45,106 nt of DNA, from assembly GCA_029260055.1 (NCBI GenBank), contig JAJDDX010000454.1, forward strand, positions 1 to 45,106, in the 5' to 3' direction. Positions 115 through 22,353 of this stretch are shown here, in pieces. Both the position numbers and the translations under genes were made by a program. How positions within the stretch are numbered: position 1 is the stretch's first letter; each line of letters opens with the position of its first letter. The notes beneath the pieces were generated by a model. The model was not told the DNA's origin. It searched no databases and worked only from the letters and a program-made list of their open reading frames with translations. This stretch comes from Phycisphaerae bacterium. GTDB lineage: Bacteria > Planctomycetota > Phycisphaerae > UBA1845.

Positions 115-236
115 GGGTGCCCCATCCTTCGGGTACTCCCGCAGGGTGGGGGAAGGATGCGGAAAGGATGCGGAAAGGATGAGAGAAGGATGCTGTGGTC
201 CGCCCCCCAACCTTGCTGCGCAAGGATGGGGCACCC
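115..236. repeat. REP-like inverted repeat, copy 1 (GGGTGCC family)
   Basis: Perfect 15-bp inverted arms, GGGTGCCCCATCCTT at 115-129 and AAGGATGGGGCACCC at 222-236, enclose about 92 bases. Inside, at 151-192, lie three to four tandem copies of a 10-11 base unit resembling GGAAAGGATGC. A diverged second copy is at 1682-1770 and shares the order of internal blocks (GGGTACTCCCG, then GTGGGGGAAGGATG, then TGGTCCGC). No coding gene is supported in 1-291; the remainder of this stretch shows nothing else I recognise. Confidence 0.8.
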
Positions 237-291
237 GCGCAGTTTGGCGACGTCAAAGGGGCGTCCCTCTTGCCGCGCCGAGCCGCAGGCT

Positions 292-3419: not shown

Positions 3420-3466
3420 CGCCGATCCTGTTGCACAAGCCGCGTTCGAGCGGTACACCGTGATAC

Positions 3467-4726: not shown

Positions 4727-4790
4727 GCCGGCTGCCGGTGTCGGTGTTGCGATACTCGGCTCGGTCTACTGGATGGGACGGATGGACACA

Positions 4791-7490: not shown

Positions 7491-8935
7491 GGCGACGAGA
7501 GTTCCTCAAGACCGTGGGCCTCTCAGCCGCGGCCGCCGCGGTGCCGTCCTGCATCTCCGCACCACGGAGGTCGCCTCCTCGCTCAGCCGCCCGCAAACCC
7601 AACTTCGTGCTAGTCCTGGTCGATGATCTCGGCTACAAGGACGCGGGCTTCATGGGCAGTCGATTCTGCGCAACGCCTGAGATCGACAGATTGGCGTCCC
7701 GCGGGGTGGTGTTCACGAATGCGTACGCCAATGCGCCAAACTGCGCCCCGAGTCGTGCCTGCCTGCTCTCGGGGCAATATGCCCCGCGGCACGGTGTCTA
7801 CACAGTCGGCACCCCGGAGCGTGGCCCCGCGCATCTTCGCAAGCTGATTCCCACACCGAACCGAACCACGCTTGCCGCGGATGTCGTGACCATCGCCGAA
7901 GCGCTCAGGCCCGTCGGGTATGTCCGCGCCAGTGTCGGCAAGTGGCATCTCGGCCGCGACCCCGAGTTCGGCCCACTTGCGCAGGGCTTCGATGTGAACA
8001 TCGGCGGCGGCCGTGCCGGGCATCCTCGCAGCTACTTCAGCCCCTACGATAACCAGAACCTCGCCGATGGGACGGCGGGGGAGTACCTCACGGATCGACT
8101 GACCGACGAGGCATTGAACTTCATCGAGTCAAACAAGGATCGGCCTTTCTTTTTGTACCTGCCCCATTTCGCCGTGCATACGCCGCTCCAGGCGAAGCGT
8201 GAGCTGATCGAAAAATACAAACAGAAAGGCGTCGTCGATGGCCGGGGAAACGCCAGGTACGCCGCTATGATCGAGAGCGTCGACAACGGCGTTGGACGCC
8301 TTATGGCCAAGCTCGACGAACTCGACCTTGCCGACGACACCCTCGTGATCTTCTTCTCGGACAATGGTGGTCATGGCAAGGTCACATCGATGGCACCGCT
8401 TCGCGGATCGAAGGGCATGCTCTACGAGGGCGGAATTCGCGTGCCGCTCGTGATGGCGGGATGCGGCGTAGCTCGACCGGACGTATCCGAGACGCCCGTG
8501 ATCGGCACCGACCTTTATCCCACCATCCTCGAAATGGCGGGTGCCGCACCTCCGATCAACCATCCACTCGATGGAAAGAGCCTGCGCCCGCTGCTCGATG
8601 GAGGCAGTGATCTTGGCCGCGATGCGCTATTCTGGCACTTCCCGGCCTATCTCGAAGGCTACGGGAAGACGAAAGGGGCCTGGCGCACGACGCCGGCCGG
8701 TGCGGTCCGCCGCGGCGACTGGAAGCTAATCGAGTTCTTCGAGGGACACAGGCTCGAACTCTACAACCTCAAAGACGACATCGGCGAACGAAACAACCTG
8801 GCTGGCGCAATGCCCGACCGAGCGCGACAACTCCACGATGTGATGCAACGTTGGCGAGCCTCGGTCAAGGCACCGGTTCCGACAAAGAGGAACCCGCGCT
8901 ACAATCCCTCAAGGGAAGCAGGACACGCAGAATGA
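7487..8935 (+). CDS. Sulfatase (formylglycine type), Tat-exported, 1st of three
   Basis: Sulfuric-ester hydrolase of the S1/alkaline phosphatase superfamily, 482 residues. The N-terminus has a twin-arginine motif (RRREFLK) followed by an alanine-rich segment. The metal-binding start VLVDDLGYKD is at about 44-52. The maturation site is C86-A-P-S-R90 (NCAPSRACLLSG), so Cys86 should become formylglycine. Later metal ligands are seen in FFSDNGGHGK. GKWHLG (about 152) is another conserved block. The start is GTG at 7487 with AAGGAAG seven bases before it, and the gene overlaps its neighbours by 4 bases on each side. The substrate is unknown; a glycan sulfate is likely given the esterase and maturase in the operon. 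Confidence 0.92.
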   Translation: MRRREFLKTVGLSAAAAAVPSCISAPRRSPPRSAARKPNFVLVLVDDLGYKDAGFMGSRFCATPEIDRLASRGVVFTNAYANAPNCAPSRACLLSGQYAPRHGVYTVGTPERGPAHLRKLIPTPNRTTLAADVVTIAEALRPVGYVRASVGKWHLGRDPEFGPLAQGFDVNIGGGRAGHPRSYFSPYDNQNLADGTAGEYLTDRLTDEALNFIESNKDRPFFLYLPHFAVHTPLQAKRELIEKYKQKGVVDGRGNARYAAMIESVDNGVGRLMAKLDELDLADDTLVIFFSDNGGHGKVTSMAPLRGSKGMLYEGGIRVPLVMAGCGVARPDVSETPVIGTDLYPTILEMAGAAPPINHPLDGKSLRPLLDGGSDLGRDALFWHFPAYLEGYGKTKGAWRTTPAGAVRRGDWKLIEFFEGHRLELYNLKDDIGERNNLAGAMPDRARQLHDVMQRWRASVKAPVPTKRNPRYNPSREAGHAE

Positions 8936-10413
8936 TCACGACCCGAGCACCGACACGCCGTGACTTCGTGAAGCGAGCGGGGCTAGGCGCTTTGACGCTG
9001 GCCGCGCCGGGTATCCTGGGCGCGGCACAGGGATCACGGCGACGCAAGCCCAACTTCCTCTTCATCCTCGTGGATGATCTGGGTTGGAAAGACCTCGGCT
9101 GTTACGGCAGCTCGCTCTACGACACGCCGAACATCGATCGGCTAGCCGCCCAGGGGATGCGCTTCACCAGCGCCTACGCAGCCTCGCCGGTCTGCTCGCC
9201 GACTCGCGCGAGCATCATGACCGGCAAGCACCCCGCTCGCCTCGGCATCACCGACTGGATCCCGGGAAACCGCCCCAAGAACCGAAAGCTCATCGGCCCG
9301 CCCATCCACAACGAATTGCCTCTTGAGGAAGTCACGATCGCCGAAGCGCTCAAAGGCCGGGGCTACGCGACGTTCTTCGCCGGCAAGTGGCATCTCGGCT
9401 CGAAGGGCCACCATCCCGAGCAGCAGGGCTTCGACATCAACAAAGGCGGCCACGACAAGGGCTCGCCGCCGGGCGGCTACTACGTGCCCTACGAGAATCC
9501 GACACTCGCCGACGGCCGGGAGGGCGAGTATCTGCCCGACCGCCTCGCCGACGAGTCAATCCGCTTTCTCGAAACCCGCCACGACGACCCGTTCCTGCTC
9601 TTCCTCTCGTTTTACACGGTCCACACGCCCATCCAGGCGTGCAAGAAGCACGTCGAGCGATACAAAGAGAAGGTGGACCGGCTCCCGGAGTCCAACGACC
9701 CCGAATACATCGCCGAGCGAGACGCCTGGGCGAAACAGCGACAGGACAACGCAGCCTACGCATCCATGGTCCACGCCATGGACGAGAACGTGGGCCGCGT
9801 GCTCGCCAAGCTCGATAAACTGGGGCTCGCGGATGATACCGTCGTCATCTTCATGTCCGACAACGGTGGCCTGTCGACACTCGGATGGAAGGGCAGTCCC
9901 ACTTCCAACTTGCCTCTGCGGGCCGGGAAGGGTTGGTGCTACGAAGGCGGTATTCGAGAACCGATGATCATCCGTGCCCCCGGTGCCACGAAGCCCGGCA
10001 GCGTGTGCGACACGCCGGTTATCAGCATGGACTTCTACCCGACGATGCTCGAACTCGCCGGGCTTGCACCGATCCCCGTGCAACATCGCGACGGATTGAG
10101 CCTCGCCCCGCTGCTGAAGGGCGGCGATTCCATCGCGCGCGACACGCTCTACTGGCATTACCCCCATTATCACGGCAGCCTCTGGACGCCCGGCGCAGCC
10201 GTCCGACACGGCGACTGGAAACTGATCGAGTTCAACGAGGAAGGGCGGACCGAGTTGTACAATCTGGCGGACGACATCGCCGAACGCACCGACCTGGCTG
10301 CAAAGATGCCCGGCAAGCGAGACGAGTTGGCGGCAATGCTGCACGCCTGGCAGGGCAGAGTCGGCGCGAGCCTGGCGAAGCCGAACCCGGACTACAAACC
10401 CAAAGGCGAGTGA
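8932..10413 (+). CDS. Sulfatase (formylglycine type), Tat-exported, 2nd of three
   Basis: A 493-residue S1-family sulfatase. A Tat motif (TRRDFVK) is at about 8-14, the metal-binding LVDDLGWKD at about 46-54, and the maturation site is C88-S-P-T-R92 (PVCSPTRASIMTGK). GKWHLGS and FMSDNGGLS are further conserved blocks. The start ATG at 8932 overlaps the preceding stop (ATGA), which argues against using any earlier in-frame start. It is more similar in layout to its upstream neighbour than to the third sulfatase, and probably arose by duplication and then changed specificity. The product is expected in the periplasm or outside the cell, folded before export with its formylglycine already made. 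Confidence 0.92.
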   Translation: MITTRAPTRRDFVKRAGLGALTLAAPGILGAAQGSRRRKPNFLFILVDDLGWKDLGCYGSSLYDTPNIDRLAAQGMRFTSAYAASPVCSPTRASIMTGKHPARLGITDWIPGNRPKNRKLIGPPIHNELPLEEVTIAEALKGRGYATFFAGKWHLGSKGHHPEQQGFDINKGGHDKGSPPGGYYVPYENPTLADGREGEYLPDRLADESIRFLETRHDDPFLLFLSFYTVHTPIQACKKHVERYKEKVDRLPESNDPEYIAERDAWAKQRQDNAAYASMVHAMDENVGRVLAKLDKLGLADDTVVIFMSDNGGLSTLGWKGSPTSNLPLRAGKGWCYEGGIREPMIIRAPGATKPGSVCDTPVISMDFYPTMLELAGLAPIPVQHRDGLSLAPLLKGGDSIARDTLYWHYPHYHGSLWTPGAAVRHGDWKLIEFNEEGRTELYNLADDIAERTDLAAKMPGKRDELAAMLHAWQGRVGASLAKPNPDYKPKGE

Positions 10414-10443
10414 CGCCCCTACTTACGCAAGGGAAACGACAGT

Positions 10444-11937
10444 ATGCCTGATTACACGCGGCGAGACTTCATGAAGGCAGCCGGCGTGGGTGTAGCGGGA
10501 ATGACGCTTCCGCAGCTCACCCTCGGCTCTACGGCGAAACCGAAGACGCCAAACATCATCTACATCCTCGCCGACGACTTGGGCTACGGCGAACTCGGCT
10601 GCTATGGCCAGCAGAAGATCGAAACGCCGAATATCGATCGGCTCGCCGCCGAGGGCATGCGATTCACGCAGCACTATTCGGGCAGTCCGGTATGTGCGCC
10701 CTCGCGCTGCACGCTTCTGACCGGCAAGCACACTGGCCACGCATACATCCGCGACAACTACGAAATCGGCGGATGGGGACCCGACGAACCGGAAGGCCAG
10801 CTCCATCTGCCCGCGGGCACCCCGACGCTCGGGCGGCTGCTGCAGCAGAGCGGTTACGCGACGTGCGCCGTGGGCAAGTGGGGCCTCGGCGGACCTGAGT
10901 CGACCGGGCACCCCAACAAGCAGGGCTTCGACCATTGGTACGGCTACCTCTGTCAGCGAGTGGCCCACAACTACTATCCGACCCACCTGTGGCGCAACGA
11001 CAAGAAGCACATGCTCGACGGCAATCCCTATTTCCGCGCCCACCAGCGCATCGACGCTCCGCCAAAGGACGCATCGGGCTACGATCGCTTCCGCGGAAAG
11101 CAATACGCGCCTGACCTGATGATCGACGAGGCACTAGGGTTCATCCGAAAGAACAAGGACGCGCCCTTCTTCCTCTACTATGCCACACCCGTGCCCCACG
11201 CCGCGATCCAGGTTCCCGAAGACTCCCTCCGCCGCTACGCCGGCCGCTGGGACGACGAGCCGTACCTCGGACACAAGGGCTATCTTCCGCACCCGTCGCC
11301 GCGCGCGGGCTACGCCGCCATGATCTCCCGCATGGACCGCGACGTCGGACGCATCATGACGCAATTGAAGGAACTCGGACTCGATAAGGACACGATCGTC
11401 ATGTTCTCGAGTGACAACGGCCCGACCTTCAACGGCGGGACCGATTCGAGGTTCTTCAACAGCGCCGGACCGCTCCGGGGGCTTAAGTGCGATCTCTACG
11501 ACGGCGGGATCCGTGTGCCGCTTATCGCTCGCTGGCCGGGCCGCGTCGCCCCGAACTCGACGAGCGATCATGTCTCCGCCTTCTGGGATGTGCTGCCCAC
11601 CGTCGCCGGGATTGTCGGTGCCGAGACGCCGGACGACATCGATGGAATCAGCTTACTTCCGACGCTGCTCGGCACCGGCAAGCAGCGCGAGCATCCGCAC
11701 TTGTACTGGGAATACCGCAGCCGCGGCGGAGGGCAGGCTCTGCGCACGGGGCGATGGAAAGGGCTTCGCCTGAAACTCGCCAAGAGCGACGACGCGCCGG
11801 TAGAACTCTACGACCTCCAAAGCGACATTGGTGAAAAAAACAACCTCGCGGACAAACACCCGGACATCGTCAAACGCATCAAGGAACTCATGAAAACCGC
11901 TCGAACCGAGTCCGAGCACTTCCCGCTTTCCGGATAG
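10444..11937 (+). CDS. Arylsulfatase-like sulfatase, Tat-exported, 3rd of three
   Basis: A 497-residue S1-family sulfatase. It has a Tat motif (TRRDFMKAAG) near the start, ILADDLGYGELG (about 41-52) for the metal site, and the maturation site C84-A-P-S-R88 (PVCAPSRCTLLTGK). SSDNGPTFNGG supplies the later Asp-Asn ligands, and the ADDLGYGELGCYGQ and HTGHAYIRDN segments are those of arylsulfatase A-like enzymes. AAGGGA precedes the ATG. It lies 30 bases after the second sulfatase and is the last gene of the operon; 227 bases, with a candidate promoter, separate its stop from the next operon's originally possible start. Confidence 0.92.
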   Translation: MPDYTRRDFMKAAGVGVAGMTLPQLTLGSTAKPKTPNIIYILADDLGYGELGCYGQQKIETPNIDRLAAEGMRFTQHYSGSPVCAPSRCTLLTGKHTGHAYIRDNYEIGGWGPDEPEGQLHLPAGTPTLGRLLQQSGYATCAVGKWGLGGPESTGHPNKQGFDHWYGYLCQRVAHNYYPTHLWRNDKKHMLDGNPYFRAHQRIDAPPKDASGYDRFRGKQYAPDLMIDEALGFIRKNKDAPFFLYYATPVPHAAIQVPEDSLRRYAGRWDDEPYLGHKGYLPHPSPRAGYAAMISRMDRDVGRIMTQLKELGLDKDTIVMFSSDNGPTFNGGTDSRFFNSAGPLRGLKCDLYDGGIRVPLIARWPGRVAPNSTSDHVSAFWDVLPTVAGIVGAETPDDIDGISLLPTLLGTGKQREHPHLYWEYRSRGGGQALRTGRWKGLRLKLAKSDDAPVELYDLQSDIGEKNNLADKHPDIVKRIKELMKTARTESEHFPLSG

Positions 11938-12011
11938 CGACTGGCGACCGCCGCAGCGCCCGGACTTCGTACATCCTGCGCTCACAAGGCTCCGCCGCGC
12001 GCGTTTGATGC

Positions 12012-12041
12012 TTGACATTCGTTTGTGAAGTAGGCTAACTT
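12012..12041 (+). promoter_or_regulatory. Candidate promoter for the propeller/haem operon
   Basis: A consensus -35 TTGACA (12012-12017) is followed after 18 bases by TAACTT (12036-12041), a poor -10. It is in the gap between the last sulfatase and the haem-protein operon, on the right strand, about 195 bases before the preferred start. Confidence 0.45.
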
Positions 12042-12236
12042 GGAACACGGATCGATTGGGTAACCCACGGCGCGTTCCGGGTTTGCGGGATTCACGGCGT
12101 GCGATCTCGTTTGCTGCGTGAGATCGTCGCATCACTGGTGACTTCGGTGTGAATCATCGCTCACGTGGATCGCGTTTTCTGTCTGGAGGTCTGCCCGGCA
12201 AGTCGAGCGAGTGGCTGGGCTCTCGGAGAACGCGCG

Positions 12237-14273
12237 TTGCTGGCAAATCGGGTGAATTCGCCGCAAACGGGGCTTGTGCTTGTCGTACTGCTCCTGGCGA
12301 GCGGGAACGGGATGCCGCTCCAGGCGGACGACCCGTTGCCGATTGCATTCGTGCAGACGCCCGCGTCGGATGCGCAGCCGGTTGGCGGCGACACCGGTAA
12401 CTCGATCCTCGCTGATCGCTACCTTGGCGGCATGCGGATCGTCACCGCACGACTGGACGGCGTGGACACATCGCGGCGCGTCGTAAGCGACGGATTCACT
12501 TGCGCGACCGATCCGGTATTCAGCCACGACGGCACGCGCCTGGCTTTTTCCGGTCGCAAACGTGCCGATGACCGCCTCGCCATTTGGGAGTTGGTCCGCG
12601 ACGATCCCGCGCCGCAGCAGATTGGCGACTGCGATGGCGACGCCGTAAGCCCGGTGTTCCTGCCGACAGGAGGCGTCATCTTCGCCTCGACCCTGTCACG
12701 CGAATTCGAGGAGCACGGCCGAAAGCTCTCGTTCTCCCTTCAAGTATTGCCGCGCGGCCAGCGCGACCCCGTTCGCCTGACCTTCAACCCAAGCAGTGAG
12801 TTCGACCCGATCGTCCTGCCGGACGGACGCATTCTCTATTCGTCGTGGCAACACGTGGGTAACCACCACTGGCCCCGCGGTACCGTCTCTCTCATGCTGG
12901 TCAACTCCGACGGAACCGGCGTCTTTCCGTTGACGGGCGGTCACCGGGGCCCGTGGCTCAAACGCGGCGCCTGCTACATCGGAGACGACCGCATCGCATT
13001 CATACGCGCCGACAAATACGGCGACTTCGGCGCCGGAGAACTGGTGACCACGTCACTCAACGACGCCTTCGCTCCGTACAGAGTGCTGCTGCCGATCAAC
13101 CGGTTTGAAGTCAGCGATCTGGCGCTTCTGCCGGACGGCGATCTGCTGCTGGCCGCGCGTCCGACCGACGGTTCGACACCGACGTTCGGGCTCTACAGGT
13201 TCCATGACGGGGAGATCACGCCGGTGTATGACGATCCGGCGATGCACGAGCTTGCGCCTGCCGTGGGAGGCGTACGGCCTCGCCCCGACCTCCGCTTCAG
13301 CACGGTCGTGGAAGATACACCCTACGGCTATCTGGCGATCCTGAACTGCGAAGAAACCGACCGAACGGATCAACACCCGCTACGCAAGGGTTCGGTCAAG
13401 GCCGTTCGTGTGCTGCAGGGCCTACCCTTGCGACACAAAGACGGCACGGCGCCCGCATTCGTCTCCGTGGCCACGCGTGAGGGCGAACCCGCCGCGCACC
13501 CGGCCTCGGGCACCGGCGGCGTACCGGTGCGCATCCTCGGCGAAGTGCCGCCCGCGTCCGACGGCTCCGTCTACCTGAAGGTGCCCGCCGATCGCCCGCT
13601 GCGCATCCAGTTGATCGACCGAGACGGGTTTAGCATCGTCAATGAACGGGCATGGTTCTGGGTCCGCCCGCATGAGCGCCGCGTCTGCATAGGCTGCCAC
13701 GAAAACCGTGAGCTCTCGCCGAACAACGTCGCGCCGCTGGCCGTGCGCCGAGAACCCACCGATCTGACAGACCCCGCGGGCTGGCGCAGCGTCACGTTCC
13801 GCGAGGACATCCAGCCGATCCTGGAAACGAGCTGCGCACTGTCCGCCTGCCACATACCGCCGACGCCGACAGCCGCGATGAACCTGTCCCCCGTTCCCAT
13901 GCCGGACGAGACGGATGCCCCGCATGCGGACCTGTACGGACCGGCCTACGCGAACCTCCTCGCGCGGCAGGATGGCAAGCCGTTTGCCGTAGGGGGACGT
14001 CGCGTCCATCCCGGCGACGCCCGTCGCAGTCCGTTGCTGTGGATGCTGTACGGTCGAGCCCTCGCGCCGCAATACAAACCCGCGGTGTTCGAAAGGCCGA
14101 TGATGGACGCCCATCCCGGGCCGATGCTTCCCGAGGCTCAACTGGAGCTGTTTCGCAAATGGGTCGACCTCGGAGCGCTCTACAGCGTCGAGGCACCGGT
14201 CGGGCCCTGGCCCTACACTTTCGAACCTCCCGACAGCGTCGTGATGGAGGGTAAATCAGATGCCACGAAGTAG
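12237..14273 (+). CDS. Exported haem protein with hydrazine-synthase-alpha-like beta-propeller
   Basis: About 678 residues from a TTG start at 12237, which has GGAG eight bases upstream and gives a normal signal peptide ending near PLQA. A GTG at 12165 would add 24 residues. The body carries TolB/YVTN-like propeller strands (PVFSHDGTRLAFSGRK, FDPIVLPDGRILYSS). A haem motif C484-I-G-C-H488 sits in the block RPHERRVCIGCHENREL, a context I associate with proteins of the hydrazine synthase alpha middle-domain family, which is common in planctomycetes and outside anammox bacteria. A second possible haem site, C533-x4-C538-H539 (CALSACH), has non-standard spacing. This is not a full hydrazine synthase subunit. 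It overlaps the next gene by 14 bases. Its role may be electron transfer or small-molecule redox chemistry outside the cytoplasm. Confidence 0.75.
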   Translation: MLANRVNSPQTGLVLVVLLLASGNGMPLQADDPLPIAFVQTPASDAQPVGGDTGNSILADRYLGGMRIVTARLDGVDTSRRVVSDGFTCATDPVFSHDGTRLAFSGRKRADDRLAIWELVRDDPAPQQIGDCDGDAVSPVFLPTGGVIFASTLSREFEEHGRKLSFSLQVLPRGQRDPVRLTFNPSSEFDPIVLPDGRILYSSWQHVGNHHWPRGTVSLMLVNSDGTGVFPLTGGHRGPWLKRGACYIGDDRIAFIRADKYGDFGAGELVTTSLNDAFAPYRVLLPINRFEVSDLALLPDGDLLLAARPTDGSTPTFGLYRFHDGEITPVYDDPAMHELAPAVGGVRPRPDLRFSTVVEDTPYGYLAILNCEETDRTDQHPLRKGSVKAVRVLQGLPLRHKDGTAPAFVSVATREGEPAAHPASGTGGVPVRILGEVPPASDGSVYLKVPADRPLRIQLIDRDGFSIVNERAWFWVRPHERRVCIGCHENRELSPNNVAPLAVRREPTDLTDPAGWRSVTFREDIQPILETSCALSACHIPPTPTAAMNLSPVPMPDETDAPHADLYGPAYANLLARQDGKPFAVGGRRVHPGDARRSPLLWMLYGRALAPQYKPAVFERPMMDAHPGPMLPEAQLELFRKWVDLGALYSVEAPVGPWPYTFEPPDSVVMEGKSDATK

Positions 14274-15963
14274 GCACCCGCGTGCTCGATCACGAACGAT
14301 CGGTCTCCTTGCGACGTGCTGCGGTATCGCCGTGGCATGGCCCGCGTACCCACAGACGCCGGAGAAGACCGCCGCGCCGGTCCTCTTCACCGACATCACG
14401 GCCAAGGCGGGAATCGACTTCGTCCAGACCATCGGCGACGACCACATGACCAATATCGTCGAGTCAGCCGGAGTCGGCTGCGGATTCCTCGACTACGACA
14501 ATGACGGCTGGATCGACATCTACCTCGTCAACGGCTGCTGGGTGAAGGGGCTCTCGAACGACAAACTGGAACCCGAGAAGATCAAACGGCTCTCAGCCGC
14601 TACCGACAAGCTCTATCGAAATCGCGGCGATGGAACGTTCGAGGATGTCACCGTCAAGGCCGGCCTCGCGAGACCGGCGTATGGTATGGGTATTACCGTC
14701 GCCGACTACAACGGCGACGGCGCCGTGGATATCTACCGGACCAACTACGGCGCGAACCGGCTCTACCGCAACAACAAGGACGGCACGTTCACCGACGTGG
14801 CCAAGGCCGCCGGCGTGGCTGATACCGACTTCGGCGTCGGCGCAGCGTTCTTCGATTACGACCGTGACGGCCGACTCGACCTCTACGTCGGCAACTACGT
14901 TCAGTACGACCCCGACTACAAGCAGTACTACGCACCCGACGGGTTCCCGGGCCCGCTCGCTTATACCGGGCAACAGGACCGGCTCTTTCACGGACAAAGT
15001 GATGGCACCTTCAAGGATGTGACGGATCAGGCCGGCATCAAGATCACGCCACACGGACGCGCGATGGGCATCGGTGCGTTCGACTACGACGGCGACGGGC
15101 TGACCGACGTGCTCGTCTCCAACGACGCCATGGAGAACTTCCTGCTCCGCAACCACGGCAACGGCACGTTCAGCAACGAGGCGCTGATGCAGGGCGTGGC
15201 ATTCGGGAAAAACGGTGACGCGACGGCTGCGATGGGCGTCGAAATCGCAGACTACGACGGCGACGGGCTCTTCGATGTTTTCGTGCCCGATATGCGCTTC
15301 TCCTGCTTGTATCACAACCTCGGTGGGGGCGTATTCGAGGATCACGCCGCCAGAACAGGCGTTGCCGCGGTCATGGGGCAGTACGTCGGTTGGGGCGGCG
15401 TGTTCGCCGACTTTGACCTCGACGGACAACTCGATCTCTACGTGAGCAACGGTGACGCCCACCACCTCGAACCGCACGAAGACGTCGTGTTCATCGGCAC
15501 CGGCGACGGCAAGTTCGCCGACGTGTCCGAGACCGCAGGTTCTTGGATGAAAGAGAAGCGCGTCGGCCGAGGCGTGGCCGGCGCCGACATCGACAACGAC
15601 GGCGACATCGACGTCCTCGTGACCAACCTCAACGATCGACCGGCTCTGCTCCGCAACGACACAGCGCGCACAGGGCGGCACTGGCTGCGCGTGGCACTTC
15701 TCGGTCAGCCCCCGAACCTCGATGCCATTGGCGCCGTGGTCAGAGTCACGGTCGGGGACAAGCAACTCGCGCGATACCGCCTCTCCGGCGGGGGCTATCT
15801 CTCTCAGCATGAGTCGCGCCTGCACTTCGGCTTGGGAAAACACGACAAGGTCGACCGTGTCGAGGTGATCTGGCCCGACGGAACGCGCAGCGTGGCCATG
15901 AACGTACCGGCCGATAAGGTCAAGGTGATCCGACAGAAGAAGGCCAAGAGGATGCCCGAGTGA
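14260..15963 (+). CDS. CRTAC1-family protein: FG-GAP/VCBS propeller with ASPIC/UnbV C-terminus
   Basis: A 567-residue exported protein with signal peptide (about 1-31). Seven calcium-binding loops of the D-x-D-x-D-G type can be seen: DYDNDGWID, DYNGDGAVD, DYDRDGRLD, DYDGDGLTD, DYDGDGLFD, DFDLDGQLD and DIDNDGDID. That fits a seven-bladed integrin-like propeller. The C-terminal 100 residues match the ASPIC/UnbV domain (GAVVRVTVGD, then YLSQHESRLHFGLG and VEVIWPDGT). GGAGGG at 14246-14251 stands nine bases before the ATG, inside the 3' end of the previous gene, so the two are coupled. Such proteins are usually binding or adhesion proteins and have no known catalytic activity. The operon places it with two haem proteins. 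Confidence 0.9.
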   Translation: MPRSRHPRARSRTIGLLATCCGIAVAWPAYPQTPEKTAAPVLFTDITAKAGIDFVQTIGDDHMTNIVESAGVGCGFLDYDNDGWIDIYLVNGCWVKGLSNDKLEPEKIKRLSAATDKLYRNRGDGTFEDVTVKAGLARPAYGMGITVADYNGDGAVDIYRTNYGANRLYRNNKDGTFTDVAKAAGVADTDFGVGAAFFDYDRDGRLDLYVGNYVQYDPDYKQYYAPDGFPGPLAYTGQQDRLFHGQSDGTFKDVTDQAGIKITPHGRAMGIGAFDYDGDGLTDVLVSNDAMENFLLRNHGNGTFSNEALMQGVAFGKNGDATAAMGVEIADYDGDGLFDVFVPDMRFSCLYHNLGGGVFEDHAARTGVAAVMGQYVGWGGVFADFDLDGQLDLYVSNGDAHHLEPHEDVVFIGTGDGKFADVSETAGSWMKEKRVGRGVAGADIDNDGDIDVLVTNLNDRPALLRNDTARTGRHWLRVALLGQPPNLDAIGAVVRVTVGDKQLARYRLSGGGYLSQHESRLHFGLGKHDKVDRVEVIWPDGTRSVAMNVPADKVKVIRQKKAKRMPE

Positions 15964-17858
15964 TGTACGCCGGCCCAGCACAATCTTGCGCGCGATGGTG
16001 TCGGGAGTTGGCGCTCGCGGGATCGGTCCTTGCTGTGACCTGCGCCGCGACTTCATTCGCTCAGGATACAGCCGCGCTCGATCTCTGCGGCCCGAAGTCC
16101 ATCCTGGTCGAACCCGACAGCGGCGACTTGCTTGTGCTATGTGAGAGGGGCGATGCCGTCATCCGTGTCGACGCGGAGACAGGCGCGATTCAAAATCGAG
16201 CAGCCACGGGTGACGAGCCCTTCGCGCTCTGCGCGGGCCCGAGTGGCGAGCGCCTCTACGTGACCTGTCGTCGCGGCCAGGAGGTCCTCGAACTCGACGC
16301 CGTTTCACTCGATACGCTCAGACGATTCCCGGTCGCGGGTGATCCGACGGGCGTAGCCGTGTCCAAAGACGGACGCCGGTTATTCGTCGGGTTGCACTCT
16401 CTCGATCAGGTGGCGGTGATCGACCTTCAGTCGGCTACCATCACCAAGCGCCTCGCCGCGGGGAACGGGCCGCAGACGCTTAGATCCGCTCCCAACACCG
16501 GGCGAGTCTACGTCACCAATCTTCTCTCCAATCCCACACCGACGGATCAACCCGCGCGCAACGAAATCACGGTGATCGACGATTCAACCGCGCGCGTGGT
16601 CGATCGCATCATCTTGGAGGGCGCCAACATCGGCCGCGACATCGCCTTCTCATCGGACGGCTCACGGGCGATCGTGGCGATCAGCAGACCCAAGAACCTC
16701 GTGCCGATGGTTCAGGTCGCTCGCGGATGGGTGGTGACCAACGGCTTCGCCGTCGTATCGACGATGGGCGAACACACGCCGATGCAGTTCCTCATCGATC
16801 TGCCCAACAAGGCCTATGCCGATCCCTACGGCGTGGCGATTACGCCCGACGACTCGAAGTTCTATTTGACAAGCGCGGGTATGGACACCGTGCTGTCCAT
16901 CGATGTACGAAAACTGGAACACGTGCAAAGCGAGGCCGCAGGCGGCGCGATCCCGCGCTATCAAGACCACCTCGGCCTGTCGCGGCGCTATGTGACGGCG
17001 CGGGTTGGCGTCGGCGCCAATCCGGAGGCCGTGGCGATCAGCCTCGACGGAAGGCATGCCTACGTCGCGAACCGGCTCGATGACTCCATCTCCGTGATCG
17101 ACACCGATTCTGATCACGTCACGCGCACCTTTGCGCTGTCCGCTCCGCGGGAGCTCAGCATAGAGGAGCGCGGCGAGAGATTCTTTCATAGCGCCGCTCG
17201 CACACTTCAGGGGCAGTTCGCCTGCGCGAGTTGTCATCCCGACCGTGGTTTTGACGGGTTGGTATACGACCTCGAACCCGACGGCCTCGGCATGGATACG
17301 CTGGACAACAGGAACATGCGCGGTGTCGAAGGTACGGCACCATTCAAGTGGGTCGGAACCAACCCGGACATCACGACGCAGTGTGGAACGCGGACGGCCA
17401 AGTGGATCATGCGCACCGGATGGCTTAGCTCCATGGAAGTCGTCGAACTGTCCACTTACATCCGGTCGATTCCGTCCGTCGTCAATCCCCAGCGCCGCCC
17501 GGACGGCAGGCTCACTGCCGCCCAGCGCCGCGGCAAGGAACTCTACGAACGCACAACCCGAAACGACGGCACGCCTCTTACCGATGTGCAGCGGTGCGAT
17601 TTCTGCCATCCCGGCCCCAAAGGCTTCGACGGACGCAAGTTCGATGTGGGCACGCAAGGATCGCGCGACAGGTACGCGGAGTTCGATTCGGCCCATCTCA
17701 ACGGCGTATTCGAGTCCGCACCGTACCTGCATGACGGAAGGGCGGCGACGCTCGAGGAAATCTGGACCAAATACAATCTCGAAGACAAGCACGGCTATTC
17801 GAGCGACTGGACCAAGCAGCAGCTCAACGACCTCGTGGAATACCTCAAGAGCTTCTGA
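15963..17858 (+). CDS. YVTN beta-propeller fused to dihaem cytochrome c (MauG/CcP-like)
   Basis: 631 residues. The start is ATG 15963, overlapping the preceding stop as TGATG, with GAGGAT nine bases upstream; a GTG three bases earlier is less likely. A signal peptide ends near SFAQ. Residues about 45-390 contain YVTN-type repeats (GVAVSKDGRRLFVGLHSLDQVAVID and similar). The C-terminal part has two haem motifs, C421-A-S-C-H425 and C545-D-F-C-H549, and the block APYLHDGRAATLEEIW that is typical of the MauG/cytochrome c peroxidase family. It probably carries or uses electrons in the periplasm. Distal ligands cannot be assigned from sequence. The next gene starts 14 bases after its stop. Confidence 0.85.
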   Translation: MYAGPAQSCARWCRELALAGSVLAVTCAATSFAQDTAALDLCGPKSILVEPDSGDLLVLCERGDAVIRVDAETGAIQNRAATGDEPFALCAGPSGERLYVTCRRGQEVLELDAVSLDTLRRFPVAGDPTGVAVSKDGRRLFVGLHSLDQVAVIDLQSATITKRLAAGNGPQTLRSAPNTGRVYVTNLLSNPTPTDQPARNEITVIDDSTARVVDRIILEGANIGRDIAFSSDGSRAIVAISRPKNLVPMVQVARGWVVTNGFAVVSTMGEHTPMQFLIDLPNKAYADPYGVAITPDDSKFYLTSAGMDTVLSIDVRKLEHVQSEAAGGAIPRYQDHLGLSRRYVTARVGVGANPEAVAISLDGRHAYVANRLDDSISVIDTDSDHVTRTFALSAPRELSIEERGERFFHSAARTLQGQFACASCHPDRGFDGLVYDLEPDGLGMDTLDNRNMRGVEGTAPFKWVGTNPDITTQCGTRTAKWIMRTGWLSSMEVVELSTYIRSIPSVVNPQRRPDGRLTAAQRRGKELYERTTRNDGTPLTDVQRCDFCHPGPKGFDGRKFDVGTQGSRDRYAEFDSAHLNGVFESAPYLHDGRAATLEEIWTKYNLEDKHGYSSDWTKQQLNDLVEYLKSF

Positions 17859-17872
17859 CCGGAGGTGACGTG

Positions 17873-19006
17873 ATGGGTAAAGCGATAATCCGAGCCGCGA
17901 CGATCCTGGGAGCCTTCGCGTGCGCAGCGTCCGCCATGCCGCCGCACTTCGACACATGGCGAACCTTCGGAAAGGCGGACGGCCTGCCGAGCGACAAGAT
18001 ACTCTGTGTCGCCGCTACGGACAGCGCCATCTGGGTCGGTACCGACAAAGGCCTGGCACGATACGCGGGCGGGAAATGGCGGACCTTCACGCCGAAAGAC
18101 GGGCTCGCACACCTCGCCGTCATGGCGATCTACGAAGATCCCGATACCGGAGACCTTTGGATCGCCACCATGGGCGGACTGAGCCGCTACTCCGCCGGGC
18201 GCTTCGATACCTTCAACCAACTCAACAGCGGACTCGCCAACGACGTGGTCTACGGCCTCACCGTGCGCCACGGCGAGGTGTGGGCGGCCACCGCAGCCGG
18301 GGCGAGTCGCTACGAAATCGCCGACAAACGCTGGACGATCTACAACGAAACAAACACGCCGATGCACGAGATCTGGTGCTACTCAGCCGCCGCATGCGAT
18401 GACAAGATCTATCTGGCTGTCTGGGGCGGCGGGCTGCTCGAATACACCAGAGCGCGCGACCGCTGGCGTGACTACAACGACCCCGACGGCGAAATGGAAA
18501 TCGATCTATTCAGAAACGACGGCCTCGTTCACGACGTCGTCGCCAGCGTCGATTGCGATGACGCCCAGCGCGTCTGGATAGCCACCTACTTCGGACTGAG
18601 CAGCTACGATGGCCGCAAGTGGCATAACTTCATGGATCACGACAGCCCGCTCGTCAGCAACTTCGTCAACTATGTCCGCACGAGCGGGACGAATTGCTGG
18701 ATCGGCACCGACCGAGGCCTCAACGCTACCGATCGCAAGAACTGGTGGACGTTCCAACGCGACGACAAGACCGGACGCGGCCTCGTAACCTACACGCCCG
18801 ACTCCGGCGCCGCGGAGCGCGTCGAGACCCCGACCGCGCTGCCGCACAACTATGTCCTCGGCATCGCCTTCTCGGGCGACGACATCTGGGTCGCTACGGA
18901 GAAGGGTGTCGCCCGCGGTACGATCTCCGGCGCTACCGCCCGCCGAGCGCCAATCGGAGCCGATGAGCCCCGTTTGACCAAGAACACGGAGGCGAAAGGA
19001 CGATGA
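17873..19006 (+). CDS. Stand-alone two-component-regulator-propeller (Reg_prop) protein, exported
   Basis: 377 residues with an N-terminal signal peptide (to about ASAMP). Repeated units of the form IWVGTDKGLARYAGGKWRTF, DLWIATMGGLSRY and RVWIATYFGLSSYDGRKW are Reg_prop blades, the kind that form the sensor part of hybrid histidine kinases in Bacteroidetes. Here no transmembrane, kinase or response-regulator part follows, so it is a free propeller. GGAGGTGA (17861-17868) gives ideal spacing to ATG 17873; a GTG at 17870 is less likely. Its stop overlaps the next start (ATGA at 19003-19006). It may bind a ligand or a partner of the neighbouring haem proteins, which is inference. Confidence 0.85.
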   Translation: MGKAIIRAATILGAFACAASAMPPHFDTWRTFGKADGLPSDKILCVAATDSAIWVGTDKGLARYAGGKWRTFTPKDGLAHLAVMAIYEDPDTGDLWIATMGGLSRYSAGRFDTFNQLNSGLANDVVYGLTVRHGEVWAATAAGASRYEIADKRWTIYNETNTPMHEIWCYSAAACDDKIYLAVWGGGLLEYTRARDRWRDYNDPDGEMEIDLFRNDGLVHDVVASVDCDDAQRVWIATYFGLSSYDGRKWHNFMDHDSPLVSNFVNYVRTSGTNCWIGTDRGLNATDRKNWWTFQRDDKTGRGLVTYTPDSGAAERVETPTALPHNYVLGIAFSGDDIWVATEKGVARGTISGATARRAPIGADEPRLTKNTEAKGR

Positions 19007-21024
19007 ACCGCGCACATCTCATGTGGCTGGCATTGTATCTGCTTTTCGCGACGCCTCTGGCCGCCCAGACGCCGGCCCCAAAACCGGCCGAGGAGCACAA
19101 GCCGGTGCCGGTCTACGGCAAAACGCCTGACATGGTCATTCCCTATCGAAGCTTCGTCGATCCCTACACGCGGTTCTTCCAGGAGATCCTGCCGTTCCGC
19201 GGCGTCATCGACGACAAGCAGCACGTGGTCGCGGGCGAACCGATCCGCATCGGCTTCTTCGCGCCGCTCGGCGATGCACCGGACGGCGATCTCGGCCAGG
19301 AAATGCTCGACGCCGTCACGCTCGCCATCGAACAGGCCAATGCCGCCGGCGGCTATCAAGGCAGACCGTTTGAACTCGTGAAAAGGGCGGACAGCGGCCT
19401 CTGGGGCGCAAGTTCGAACGAAATGGTCGCGTTCAAGTACGAAGACGACGTAGTGGCCGTCATAGGTTCGATCGACGGCGGCAACACGCACATCGCTCTG
19501 CGCGTCGCCTTAAAGGTGCAGTTGGCGATGGTCAACACCGCCACAACAGACCCGACCTTGACCGAGACGAATATCCCGTGGCTCCTGCGCTGCATGGCGG
19601 ACGCTCGCCAGCAGGGCTACGCGCTGGCCCATCACATCTTCGTCGAATGTGGCATCGAGAAGGTCGCGATGCTCCGCGTGAACAACCGCTTCGGTCGCAT
19701 GGGAATCGGCGAGTTCCGCGACGCCGCAAGGCGTCTCAAACACCCCCTTCGCGTCGAAATGCGGTGGGAGCCCCGCCGGCACGACTTCGACCTCCAACTC
19801 GATCGAATCGCTCAAACGGAACCCGAGGCAATCGTCTTGTGGGGGGACGCGCGCGACTGTGCGGCGGTCGTTCGCGAGATACGGCGCAGGAACATGCCGG
19901 TGCGCATCTTCGGGTGCGACAGGCTGGTAAGTAGCACCTTCCTCGAGCTTGCCGGTGGGGCGGCCGAGGGTGTCGTCGCCGTCGCGACGCACGATCCCAC
20001 GCGCGCCGATCCCAAACTCACCGAGTTCGTGGAGGCCTACAAGGCCAGGTTCCAGCGCGAGCCGGAGACCTTCGCGGCGCATGCCTACGACGGTGCGAAC
20101 ATCCTGCTGACGGCCATCGCCAAGGTGGGACCGTCGCGGTTTGCCATCCGCGACGCGCTCTACGATTTCACAAATTTTGACGGCGTGACCGGGCCGATCG
20201 AGTTCGACACGACGCTCAACGACATAGGGCCCGTCTACATCGCCACCGTGCGTAACGGCGCCTTCGTCTACCGTCCGGCGGAATTCACGAAGGCCGCATT
20301 GAACTCAGACGCCCCAGCGCCATACCGAAGCCTCGCTCAGTCCGCGCCGACGGCTCGAACGCCGGTGCGCCAAAGCGACACGGTACGGGAGACTTATCGA
20401 GTGGGATGTTACCTCCCGCTGGATGCAGGCGGCGAGGCCGCCCTCCGCGGCATACGGATGGCCCTGGCCGAAGACGCAGCCCACCATCCCGACGCGATGC
20501 CGATCGAGTTGCTCGTGCGTGACTCGCGAGCAGGCAAGGCAACCGAAGGATGGGGCGAGAATACCGGAGCACTGACCGACTTGGTCCTGTCCGACGAAGT
20601 GCTTGCTGTGATCGGATCCACGGAGCGGCGGGGCACGCACCTGGCCGAGATGCTCGCAGCCAAGTTCCATTTTCCGGTGCTGTCGCTTTGCCCATCCGAC
20701 GCGACGATTACGCAAATCCCGCTGCCCTGGGTGTTCCAGGTGGCGTCGGATTCGATCGGGATCGACCCCGGTTTTGCTCGCCGCTTCAGCGAGAAGTATT
20801 CGATCGGCCCCGACCGCCATGCTGCGTGGGGCTACGATGCCGGGGCGGTTGTCGCTACCAACATCCGACGAGGCGCTCGTGATCGCGTCTCCCTTCGAAA
20901 CGCGCTCGCCTCTGGCAGCGAGGAGACACCTTTCTGTCGGTTTGACGCACTGGGAAACCGCAAAACCGAACGCACTGCCACCTCGAGTACGTCACCCATC
21001 GAATCGGGGCTCGCCGGCCCGTAA
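19003..21024 (+). CDS. Tandem periplasmic-binding protein (two Peripla_BP_6-like modules)
   Basis: 673 residues with a signal peptide (MNRAHLMWLALYLLFATPLA). Module 1 (about 72-430) is a branched-chain-amino-acid-type binding protein: IRIGFFAPLG, AIEQANAAGGYQG, VVAVIGSIDGGNTH, and EAYKARFQREPETFAAHAYDGANIL split over the second lobe. Module 2 (about 455-650) repeats the same plan (VGCYLPLDAGGEAALRGIRMAL, AVIGSTERRGTHLAEML, PDRHAAWGYDAGAVV). Such proteins normally deliver ligands to an ABC importer, but no permease or ATPase is near. It is the last gene of the five-gene set and is coupled to the propeller gene. It may instead act as a ligand sensor or a substrate carrier for the haem proteins. 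The C-terminus after 650 is low complexity. Confidence 0.85.
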   Translation: MNRAHLMWLALYLLFATPLAAQTPAPKPAEEHKPVPVYGKTPDMVIPYRSFVDPYTRFFQEILPFRGVIDDKQHVVAGEPIRIGFFAPLGDAPDGDLGQEMLDAVTLAIEQANAAGGYQGRPFELVKRADSGLWGASSNEMVAFKYEDDVVAVIGSIDGGNTHIALRVALKVQLAMVNTATTDPTLTETNIPWLLRCMADARQQGYALAHHIFVECGIEKVAMLRVNNRFGRMGIGEFRDAARRLKHPLRVEMRWEPRRHDFDLQLDRIAQTEPEAIVLWGDARDCAAVVREIRRRNMPVRIFGCDRLVSSTFLELAGGAAEGVVAVATHDPTRADPKLTEFVEAYKARFQREPETFAAHAYDGANILLTAIAKVGPSRFAIRDALYDFTNFDGVTGPIEFDTTLNDIGPVYIATVRNGAFVYRPAEFTKAALNSDAPAPYRSLAQSAPTARTPVRQSDTVRETYRVGCYLPLDAGGEAALRGIRMALAEDAAHHPDAMPIELLVRDSRAGKATEGWGENTGALTDLVLSDEVLAVIGSTERRGTHLAEMLAAKFHFPVLSLCPSDATITQIPLPWVFQVASDSIGIDPGFARRFSEKYSIGPDRHAAWGYDAGAVVATNIRRGARDRVSLRNALASGSEETPFCRFDALGNRKTERTATSSTSPIESGLAGP

Positions 21025-21336: not shown

Positions 21337-22353
21337 ATGATCATAGTCATGAACGCTGACAGCACGCAAGTGGATGTCGACCGCGTCTTACACCGTGTCG
21401 AGCAGCAAGGACTGATCGGCCTGCCCATCGACCACGAGGCTAGAAGAGTGGTCGAGGTCCAGGGCGTCAACGGCAAGTTTGACCGCGTCGGGCTCGAGGC
21501 CGACCCCATGGTCGATCAAGTCGTGGACAGCGCGGGTCCGATGCTCGCCGCAGACCGTAAGCCGGGCGATGCGACGTTCGAGGTCCCGCTCGGCGAGCAT
21601 GCCACCATTGGAGCGCAAAAGCTCGCGATCATCGCCGGGCCTTGCTGCGTTGAAAGCAAGACACAACTTCTCGAAATCGCAGCCGCCGCCAAAGAGGCCG
21701 GGGCGGTGGCGCTTCGCGGCGGGGCGTTCAAACCGCGTACCTCGCCCTATTCCTTCCAGGGTCACGGCGAGCAGGGGCTCGAATGGCTCGCGCTGGCACG
21801 TGAGAAGACCGGGCTCGCCATCGTCACCGAAGTCATGCGATGCGAACATGTCGATCTCGTGGCACGCTACGCCGACGTGCTGCAGATCGGTTCGCGCAAC
21901 ATGCACCACACGCACTTGCTGGCTGCCGCCGGCGCGCAGTCGAAGCCGGTCCTGTTGAAACGTGGTTGGAGCGCGACCCTGGACGAGTTCCTCCAGGCGG
22001 CTGAGTACGTCATGCTGGAGGGCAATCGGAACGTCATACTGTGCGAGCGTGGAATCCGCACGCACGAAACGTACGTCCGCAACACACTGGCCCTGTCCGT
22101 GGTACCGCACGTCAAGCAGGTCTCTCGTCTTCCGATCATCGTGGACCCGTCCCACGGCACGGGGCGGGCGGATCTGGTTTCGCCAATGAGCAACGCGGCC
22201 ATCGCCTGCGGGGCCGACGGGCTGTTGGTGGAGATCCAGCGATCCGACACGCGAGCCTGGACGGACGCGGCACAATCGCTCGATCCGGCCGAATTCAACA
22301 CGCTTATCGCGGCCCTGAGGCCTTTCGCCGCCGCCGCGAAACGCACCGTCTAA
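21337..22353 (+). CDS. aroF: 3-deoxy-7-phosphoheptulonate synthase (DAHP synthase, type I-beta)
   Basis: First enzyme of the shikimate pathway; condenses phosphoenolpyruvate and erythrose 4-phosphate in the cytoplasm. 338 residues: an N-terminal ferredoxin-like (FL) domain of about 70 residues, which in related enzymes gives feedback control, then the barrel. Conserved blocks are IAGPCCVES (about 103-111; the Cys is a metal ligand), RGGAFKPRTSPYSFQG, LQIGSRNM, LLKRG and VDPSHGTGR, all of the AroF/KDO8P synthase type. GGAG eight bases before the ATG supports this start. It is followed by a long repeat-filled gap and does not form an operon with trpD, which lies on the other strand. Confidence 0.93.
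   Translation: MIIVMNADSTQVDVDRVLHRVEQQGLIGLPIDHEARRVVEVQGVNGKFDRVGLEADPMVDQVVDSAGPMLAADRKPGDATFEVPLGEHATIGAQKLAIIAGPCCVESKTQLLEIAAAAKEAGAVALRGGAFKPRTSPYSFQGHGEQGLEWLALAREKTGLAIVTEVMRCEHVDLVARYADVLQIGSRNMHHTHLLAAAGAQSKPVLLKRGWSATLDEFLQAAEYVMLEGNRNVILCERGIRTHETYVRNTLALSVVPHVKQVSRLPIIVDPSHGTGRADLVSPMSNAAIACGADGLLVEIQRSDTRAWTDAAQSLDPAEFNTLIAALRPFAAAAKRTV

What the first reader, a model, noticed from the sequence alone, without database searches (positions are those of the whole stretch)
12237..21024. Five-gene exported propeller/haem/binding-protein operon
Sequence: five genes on one strand with overlaps or gaps of 14 bases or less, each with a signal peptide. Four encode beta-propellers of different types in a row (HzsA-middle-like, FG-GAP/UnbV, YVTN, Reg_prop). 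Two of them have c-type haem motifs, up to four sites in total, and the fifth encodes two fused ligand-binding modules. Known families: each alone is known in planctomycetes. Inference: coupled synthesis suggests one periplasmic or surface complex that binds a small ligand and passes electrons. No permease, ATPase, kinase or quinol-oxidising partner is next to it, so it is neither an ordinary ABC importer nor a two-component sensor. I know of no described system with this set.
Basis: partly seen in the sequence, partly recalled or inferred. Interest (0 to 1): 0.8.

Follow-up and report, generated by a model that had tools for sequence, protein, structure and literature searches.

The report
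Hydrazine-synthase-like exported redox gene cluster
Five neighbouring genes in this planctomycete encode an exported, haem-bearing relative of the anammox enzyme hydrazine synthase together with partner proteins; the same set recurs in several bacterial phyla, probably does a different chemical job from the anammox enzyme, and that job is still unknown.

Summary
The five genes are real and tightly packed. Gene 1 is a relative of hydrazine synthase (HZS) alpha, gene 3 of a fused beta-gamma subunit, by sequence and predicted fold. The order alpha / FG-GAP / beta-gamma / Reg_prop / binding protein is kept in 45 of 48 loci with enough DNA (39 of 42 without contigs that built the profiles), under record titles of at least five phyla. 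Fused genes elsewhere link alpha to beta-gamma and Reg_prop to the binding protein. HZS-specific residues (alpha Tyr591; gamma His144, Asp168) are missing; the third haem cysteine (gamma Cys165) and a MauG-type tryptophan are kept, so hydrazine synthesis is very unlikely. Two cytosolic genes are attached in many relatives: DAHP synthase (15 of 79 loci, and the window) and a Rid/chorismatase-like protein (31 of 79; missing in the window). Best reading: a periplasmic HZS-like haem oxidoreductase with a ligand-binding module, possibly tied to chorismate-derived metabolism; substrate unknown. Papers of 2023 and 2025 already describe such HZS-like genes, the FG-GAP gene and binding proteins; the Reg_prop, Rid and DAHP synthase links were not in the text I read.

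The parts
12237..14273 (+). Gene 1: HZS alpha-like subunit (TolB-like propeller, HZS middle domain, C-terminal haem domain), probably exported; start unsettled (12165/12237/12252)
   Evidence: PF18582 74 bits; NCBIfam hydrazine_alpha 183 bits, below cutoff 800; PDB 5c2v_A E 2e-38; AF2 model best fold match 5c2v_A, Z 34.3 over 608 residues
13686..13700 (+). Haem alpha-I motif CIGCH
   Evidence: C-x-G-C-H-E in 80 of 80 alpha rows
13833..13853 (+). Haem alpha-II motif, CX4CH form (CALSACH)
   Evidence: a CX4CH occurs in 34 of 80 alpha rows
14260..15963 (+). Gene 2: FG-GAP / UnbV (CRTAC1-type) propeller
   Evidence: PF13517 166 bits, PF07593 79 bits; kept after gene 1
15960..17858 (+). Gene 3: HZS beta-gamma-like fusion (7-bladed propeller + dihaem MauG/CCP-like domain)
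   Evidence: hydrazine_BC 179, hydrazine_beta 149, hydrazine_gamma 92 bits, all below cutoffs; PDB 5c2v_B and 5c2v_C; AF2 model vs 5c2v_B Z 43.6 over 341 residues
17223..17237 (+). Haem gamma-I motif CASCH
   Evidence: C, C and H in 58 of 58 rows
17349..17351 (+). Trp464, where HZS has gamma His144 and MauG/CCP a Trp
   Evidence: 58 of 58 rows W; the four anammox-type rows H; role from PMC12758564
17382..17384 (+). Cys475, equivalent of HZS gamma Cys165 (third haem link)
   Evidence: 55 of 58 rows C, 3 rows E; the four anammox-type rows C
17595..17609 (+). Haem gamma-II motif CDFCH
   Evidence: complete in 56 of 58 rows
17870..19006 (+). Gene 4: Reg_prop propeller, no kinase domain found
   Evidence: PF07494 52 bits; a Reg_prop is fused to a binding protein in L036
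19003..21024 (+). Gene 5: LivJ-type (Peripla_BP_6) binding protein plus a second partial module, probably exported
   Evidence: PF13458 169 bits, residues 80-419; PDB LivJ family
21337..22353 (+).
   Evidence: PRK08673 411 bits, above cutoff 335; same place in near relatives

Best explanation
Genes 1 and 3 encode a periplasmic (or surface) haem enzyme built like hydrazine synthase: an alpha subunit with two haems docked on a beta-gamma subunit whose dihaem part is MauG/peroxidase-like. Electrons enter or leave at haem gamma-II (from a fused octahaem part in most relatives, from a free cytochrome in this clade); chemistry happens at haem gamma-I, held by three cysteines and flanked by a redox-relay tryptophan; a second step happens at haem alpha-I. 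Genes 4 and 5 form a ligand-capturing unit (binding protein with a Reg_prop propeller) that feeds or senses the substrate, and gene 2 is a scaffold or third subunit. It does not make hydrazine. The association of DAHP synthase and a Rid/chorismatase-like enzyme suggests that a chorismate-derived aromatic is the substrate, cofactor or electron carrier. Shown by sequence: homology, conserved order, gene fusions, kept and lost residues, the two cytosolic companions. Inferred: export, complex formation, electron path, the oxidative (MauG-like) direction, and the aromatic link.
For: Homology to all three HZS subunits by profile and PDB sequence search, and to alpha and beta by predicted fold. Order kept in 45 of 48 loci with enough DNA, 39 of 42 without profile contigs; also in G226 from another search. 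Fusions: alpha with beta-gamma in one 1770-aa frame with four haem motifs; Reg_prop with binding protein in one frame. Trp464 58/58, Cys475 55/58. DAHP synthase within about 1 kb in 15 of 79 loci, about 0.5 expected by gene density; its cluster copies form several groups on a tree. Rid/chorismatase-like ORF in 31 of 79 loci.
Against: No substrate, no assay, no co-fold. HMM scores lie far below the NCBIfam HZS cutoffs. The Rid-like protein scores below the cutoffs of both the Rid (106) and chorismatase (325) families, is missing from this window, and the genome holds only distant Rid hits of 30 bits or less. DAHP synthase is seen in only 15 of 79 loci, two of them on the other strand. The binding protein's best solved relatives are branched-chain amino-acid binders. 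The AF2 model of gene 3 has low confidence at residues 431-474, the region of Trp464. Three of 48 loci lack the order.
Confidence: 0.45

Rival explanations
1. A true hydrazine synthase of a novel anammox lineage: NO plus ammonium to hydrazine, as PMC10732223 proposed for seven Phycisphaerae MAGs.
For: Homology of both subunits and kept Cys165; multihaem HAO-like ORFs in the genome.
Against: At the aligned places alpha Tyr591 is a gap, gamma His144 is Trp and gamma Asp168 is Thr or Leu in 30 of 30 non-anammox rows; PMC12758564 reports losses of this kind and rejects anammox for its homologues; PMC10732223 itself found no hydrazine dehydrogenase in its genomes.
Confidence: 0.04
2. A different nitrogen-oxide enzyme: gamma-I reduces or detoxifies NO, alpha-I handles hydroxylamine, without hydrazine.
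For: Closest solved structure is HZS; HZS gamma-I binds NO when reduced (PMC12607021, passages).
Against: The proposed proton donor Asp168 and His144 are not kept; binding protein and DAHP synthase have no obvious place.
Confidence: 0.15
3. A MauG-like maturation system: the dihaem part oxidises residues of a partner protein rather than a small substrate.
For: Trp464 in 58 of 58 rows; weak MauG/CCP-family matches.
Against: The HZS-type alpha subunit and a kept binding protein point to a small ligand; no obvious dedicated protein substrate in the cluster.
Confidence: 0.13
4. A sensor: binding protein and Reg_prop measure a ligand, the haems report redox state, and signalling goes to an unlinked partner.
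For: Reg_prop fused to a binding protein; Reg_prop is named for two-component sensors.
Against: No kinase domain found, and an enzyme-like haem core with strongly kept residues.
Confidence: 0.1
5. Accidental neighbours in this genome.
For: None found.
Against: Same order in 45 of 48 loci with enough DNA.
Confidence: 0.01

Closest known systems
Hydrazine synthase HzsABC of anammox bacteria (PDB 5c2v)
   Same: Alpha and beta-gamma architecture, haem sites alpha-I, alpha-II, gamma-I, gamma-II, third haem cysteine
   Different: Tyr591, His144 and Asp168 not kept; alpha gene upstream instead of downstream; beta and gamma fused; FG-GAP, Reg_prop and binding-protein partners
HZS-homologue clusters, clades I-III of PMC12758564 (2025)
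   Same: Alpha, FG-GAP gene, fused beta-gamma; clade III with two ABC substrate-binding genes downstream; Trp for His144; Cys165 kept in clade I
   Different: Window clade has haem alpha-II but no extra N-terminal haems in beta-gamma and a double binding module in one gene; Reg_prop, Rid-like and DAHP synthase members are not mentioned in its main text (sections 7, 8, 12 part 1 read; word search)
HZS-like genes of Phycisphaerae UBA1845 MAGs (PMC10732223, 2023)
   Same: Near relatives L040, L043, L044 come from MAGs OFTM321, 174, 285 of that paper (titles)
   Different: That paper suggests anammox; residues here argue against. It describes hzsA immediately upstream of hzsBC, which fits the paralogue form without an FG-GAP gene between (as on own contig C386) better than this cluster
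PQQ-dependent alcohol dehydrogenase-associated system (TIGR03866 propeller with a binding protein)
   Same: Works somewhat like it: YVTN propeller and periplasmic binding protein beside cytochromes (recalled)
   Different: Propeller 84 bits against cutoff 287; no PQQ enzyme or ABC parts seen beside it

Membership tests
Hydrazine synthase | NCBIfam cutoffs for alpha (800), beta-gamma fusion (1250), beta (560), gamma (625) | tested here: not met
   183, 179, 149 and 92 bits
Hydrazine synthase | Alpha and beta folds | tested here: met
   AF2 models: 5c2v_A Z 34.3 over 608 residues, 5c2v_B Z 43.6 over 341 residues
Hydrazine synthase | Gamma fold | tested here: inconclusive
   sequence match to 5c2v_C, E 2e-23; fold search barely tested this part
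Hydrazine synthase | Alpha Tyr591 as haem alpha-I ligand | tested here: not met
   gap at the aligned place in 30 of 30 non-anammox rows, Tyr in 5 of 5 anammox-type rows
Hydrazine synthase | Gamma His144 and Asp168 | tested here: not met
   Trp, and Thr or Leu, in 30 of 30 rows; Trp in 58 of 58
Hydrazine synthase | Gamma Cys165, third covalent haem link | tested here: met
   Cys475; 55 of 58 rows; the bond itself cannot be tested here
Hydrazine synthase | Hydrazine formation | not testable with these tools
   needs an enzyme assay
bCcP/MauG dihaem family | Two CXXCH and the Trp named in PMC12758564 | tested here: met
   window has all; Trp 58 of 58, gamma-I motif 58 of 58, gamma-II motif 56 of 58
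bCcP/MauG dihaem family | Pfam CCP_MauG cutoff 25.6 | tested here: not met
   22.3 bits
HZS-homologue clusters of PMC12758564 | Alpha - FG-GAP - fused beta-gamma order | tested here: met
HZS-homologue clusters of PMC12758564 | Placement in a named clade (I to IV) | tested here: inconclusive
   8 rows incl. window group together, 100/100, but the paper's sequences were not in the tree and the tool warns of long branches
PQQ-associated propeller TIGR03866 | cutoff 287 | tested here: not met
   84 bits
ABC importer | Permease and ATPase genes beside the binding protein | tested here: not met
   none among the genes scanned in 12-22 kb or among neighbour families shared by 4 or more loci; other window ORFs judged by eye
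Two-component sensor | Kinase with Reg_prop | tested here: not met
   no kinase domain in gene 4
FkbO/Hyg5 chorismatase (Rid-like gene of relatives) | TIGR04444 cutoff 325 | tested here: not met
   at most 68 bits in 10 proteins scanned
FkbO/Hyg5 chorismatase (Rid-like gene of relatives) | Cys and catalytic Glu seven residues apart (Cys-318, Glu-325 of Nat-hyg5, PMC7170507 passages) | tested here: met
   C-R/K-x-D/E-L-L-x-E in 28 of 32 ORFs, 3 more with M for the second L; not shown to be exclusive of other Rid proteins

The most novel reading that the evidence does not exclude
A widespread, uncharacterised extracytoplasmic haem-enzyme system, sharing ancestry with hydrazine synthase, that acts on or through a chorismate-derived aromatic made by its own DAHP synthase and Rid/chorismatase-like enzyme and captured by its own binding protein; anammox hydrazine synthase would be a repurposed branch of it.
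Probability: 0.25. Interest if true: 0.85.

Novelty: new variant of a known kind. Interest (0 to 1): 0.6.

Why it matters
Hydrazine synthase was thought to lack relatives (so the abstract of PMC12758564). Here its core appears as one part of a five-gene system, with two further companions, conserved under record titles of at least five phyla; that gives a concrete setting in which to ask what the relatives of the enzyme do. It also bears on a published suggestion that near relatives of this bacterium could be novel anammox bacteria, and warns that hzs-like hits alone are not anammox markers. The fusions and the DAHP synthase and Rid links supply testable guesses about which proteins touch and what the substrate is.

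Tried and rejected
Rejected: accidental neighbours; the upstream sulfatase/PhoD block as part of the system, since its genes hit only 2 of 79 loci, L088 and L090, and none of L018-L037; a plain 'no described system' claim; ABC importer and two-component sensor.

Led nowhere: promoter and terminator scans at both ends (0 promoter-like sites in either stretch; 0 terminator-like near 21 kb, 2 near 12 kb). The ligand of gene 5 could not be told: the best solved relatives are branched-chain amino-acid binders; some lower rows are aromatic binders by my recollection. The Rid-like protein could not be assigned. In VIA-align most rows cover the propellers only, so the gamma domain was barely tested.

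Results against my reading, and limits: 3 of 48 loci lack the order (L062 has genes 1-3 only, L067 and L089 none after gene 1). Only the best 79 of 273 alpha relatives were read, so the 48 lean to near kin; alpha-profile matches occur in 62 of 294 genomes of the phylum, most of which I did not read. 3 of 58 gene-3 rows have Glu for Cys475, and L089, L105 and L109 also have only two haem motifs. In the DAHP synthase tree the window appears twice (L135 is the window itself, labelled 'other') and L134 is a near copy, which inflates the label changes; moves of the gene out of the cluster are not excluded. Distances to DAHP synthase are between open frames, not start codons. L044's contig ends about 380 bp after gene 5 with no DAHP synthase hit. 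The density test treats related loci as independent. The L124 fusion row sits on a very long branch.
Full report
OBSERVATION. The window (G000:C395 of a 7.6-Mb, 500-contig genome) holds five + strand genes from 12165/12237 to 21024 with a 14-base overlap, a 4-base overlap, an 11-base gap and a 4-base overlap. Pfam gives PD40 and HZS_alpha; FG-GAP_3 and UnbV_ASPIC; a YVTN-type propeller; Reg_prop; Peripla_BP_6. Haem motifs: one CXXCH and one CX4CH in gene 1, two CXXCH in gene 3. Signal peptides were judged by eye.

WHAT GENES 1 AND 3 ARE. NCBIfam scores gene 1 against hydrazine synthase alpha (183 bits, cutoff 800) and gene 3 against the beta-gamma fusion (179, cutoff 1250), beta (149, cutoff 560) and gamma (92, cutoff 625). 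Against PDB sequences at E up to 0.01, gene 1 has one match, HZS alpha 5c2v_A (E 2e-38); gene 3 has eight, HZS beta first (8e-36), an archaeal YVTN surface protein second and HZS gamma third (2e-23). AlphaFold2 models (gene 1: pLDDT 83.8, pTM 0.86, 56 sequences; gene 3: 80.3, 0.84, 49 sequences) have as best PDB match 5c2v_A (E 4.9e-41; next TolB 5e-13) and 5c2v_B (E 6e-29; next 4e-22). VIA-align gives Z 34.3 over 608 residues (rmsd 3.4) and Z 43.6 over 341 residues (rmsd 2.7). So both are homologues of the HZS core; the gamma part rests on sequence alone.

IS IT HYDRAZINE SYNTHASE? Against anammox-type sequences from the phylum search (five alpha, four beta-gamma), 30 of 30 other alpha rows have a gap where Tyr591 stands; 30 of 30 other gene-3 rows have Trp where gamma has His144, and Thr or Leu where it has Asp168. 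Gamma Cys165 is matched by Cys475 in 55 of 58 rows, Glu in L045, L105, L109; Trp464 in 58 of 58. The roles of Tyr591, His144 and Cys165 are taken from PMC12758564 (abstract, sections 7, 8 and 12 part 1 read), that of Asp168 from PMC12607021 (passages). Hydrazine synthesis is therefore very unlikely. PMC10732223 (abstract, sections 8 and 10, passages) proposed that seven UBA1845 MAGs could be novel anammox; MAGs OFTM321, 174 and 285 of that list are the sources of L040, L043 and L044 (titles). I infer, without having checked the other four MAGs, that the claim rests on the form with alpha directly upstream of beta-gamma.

CONSERVATION. A genome-contig scan with gene 1 found 273 relatives, of which the best 79 loci were kept. 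With profiles of genes 1-5, 48 loci have at least 7.4 kb after gene 1, and 45 of these have genes 2, 3, 4, 5 in order on one strand (L101 is counted, its listed order differs because stop-to-stop frames were sorted). Six of the 48 are profile contigs; without them 39 of 42. Exceptions: L062, L067, L089. Record titles of loci with the order name Planctomycetota, Acidobacteria, Omnitrophota, Latescibacterota, Verrucomicrobia, Deferribacteres and FCB. In the genome's family, 22 of 51 genomes have a gene-3 homologue at E below 1e-30.

FORMS. In 44 of 58 gene-3 rows there are ten CXXCH; eleven have two (the window, L038-L044, L089, L105, L109), three have 1, 6 or 9. In L027 the extra ones lie in an N-terminal cytochrome c554-like part. 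The window and L038-L044 group together (100/100). A third form, also on this genome's contig C386, has four extra haems, alpha directly followed by beta-gamma, an alpha lacking haem II, and Reg_prop fused to a binding protein in one 761-aa frame. In L124 alpha and beta-gamma are one 1770-aa frame with four haem motifs. The fusions suggest that alpha works with beta-gamma and Reg_prop with the binding protein.

CYTOSOLIC COMPANIONS. Clustering of neighbours showed a Rid-type protein and DAHP synthase. DAHP synthase: 15 of 79 loci; in 13 the open frames lie within 200 bp of the cluster or overlap it, and in two (L078, L101) it is on the other strand, 0.4-1.05 kb away. Fourteen genomes with it hold 47 PF00793 genes in about 57 Mb, so about 0.5 is expected in the 596 kb of flank (nominal P about 1e-17, loci treated as independent). 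In the window clade it follows gene 5 in L039, L040 (partial), L041, L042 and L169, as in the window; L044's contig ends too soon to tell. On a tree the cluster copies form several groups, at least three by my count, which fits repeated recruitment, though moves out are not excluded. The window's genome has three other DAHP synthases by score, one of them a 90% identical DNA copy elsewhere, plus a low-scoring gene in an outer group, probably KDO8P synthase. Rid-type ORF: 31 of 79 loci. It follows gene 4 directly in all seven near relatives L038-L044, with gene 5 next in six (L038's contig ends), and in L169; the window lacks it, and the genome has only distant Rid hits. Of the long forms scanned, L048, L059 and L078 match FkbO/Hyg5 chorismatase best (54-68 bits, cutoff 325) and L075 matches Rid slightly better; the six shorter ones scanned match Rid best; all are below cutoff. 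Thirty-one of 32 ORFs carry C-R/K-x-D/E-L-L/M-x-E, whose Cys and Glu are spaced as Cys-318 and the catalytic Glu-325 of Nat-hyg5 (PMC7170507, passages).

MECHANISM. Shown: homology, order, fusions, residues kept and lost, companions. Inferred: export; alpha and beta-gamma assemble as in HZS; electrons pass at gamma-II; gamma-I with a Trp relay does oxidative MauG/peroxidase-like chemistry; a second step at alpha-I; binding protein and Reg_prop bring or sense the ligand; an aromatic made from chorismate is substrate, cofactor or carrier (my weakest step, about 0.25).

NOVELTY. PMC12758564 already reports alpha / FG-GAP / beta-gamma clusters and two ABC substrate-binding genes in one clade. Its main text has no 'regulator', 'RidA', 'deoxy' or 'chorism'. 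Library searches combining HZS with propeller, chorismatase, DAHP synthase or HZS-like terms listed no further paper that describes the set as far as titles and abstract starts show ([20 of 61 listed], 46, 65, 66); figures, supplements and most subscription papers were not seen. I call it a new variant of a known kind.

Noticed in passing
L036 (G000:C386:6000-25220), 10816-17283: Second HZS-like cluster in the same genome: alpha directly followed by a beta-gamma with four extra haems and a Reg_prop::binding-protein fusion.
   Followed up: partly
L168 (G000:C362:50000-66000), 6150-11983: Third, more distant pair: a 1344-aa frame with an alpha-like part next to a 610-aa beta-gamma-like frame; the genome search reported one TAG inside the latter match.
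   Followed up: no
L167 (G000:C165), 10863-12077: DAHP synthase copy 90% identical in DNA to the window's, without the cluster; recent duplication or mixed strains.
   Followed up: partly
window 1839-11937: Same-strand block of SASA esterase, anaerobic sulfatase maturase (TIGR03942, 425 bits, above cutoff), PhoD-like phosphatase and three sulfatases (two scanned, one by eye); not conserved with the five genes.
   Followed up: partly
L125, L126, L127 (G000:C50, C231, C312): HAO-like multihaem cytochrome ORFs (PF13447 over cutoff); whether they oxidise or reduce was not tested.
   Followed up: no
L054, L083, L086, L087, L094, L096: Carbon-nitrogen hydrolase family gene, opposite strand, right after the cluster in 6 of 79 loci (one scanned).
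   Followed up: no
window 116-308 and 1680-1724; L167 2370-3638: Short repeats shared between the window and another contig of the genome (31-45 bases, 87-94% identical).
   Followed up: no
L045, L105, L109: Gene-3 homologues with Glu in place of the third haem cysteine, possibly the older peroxidase-like state.
   Followed up: no
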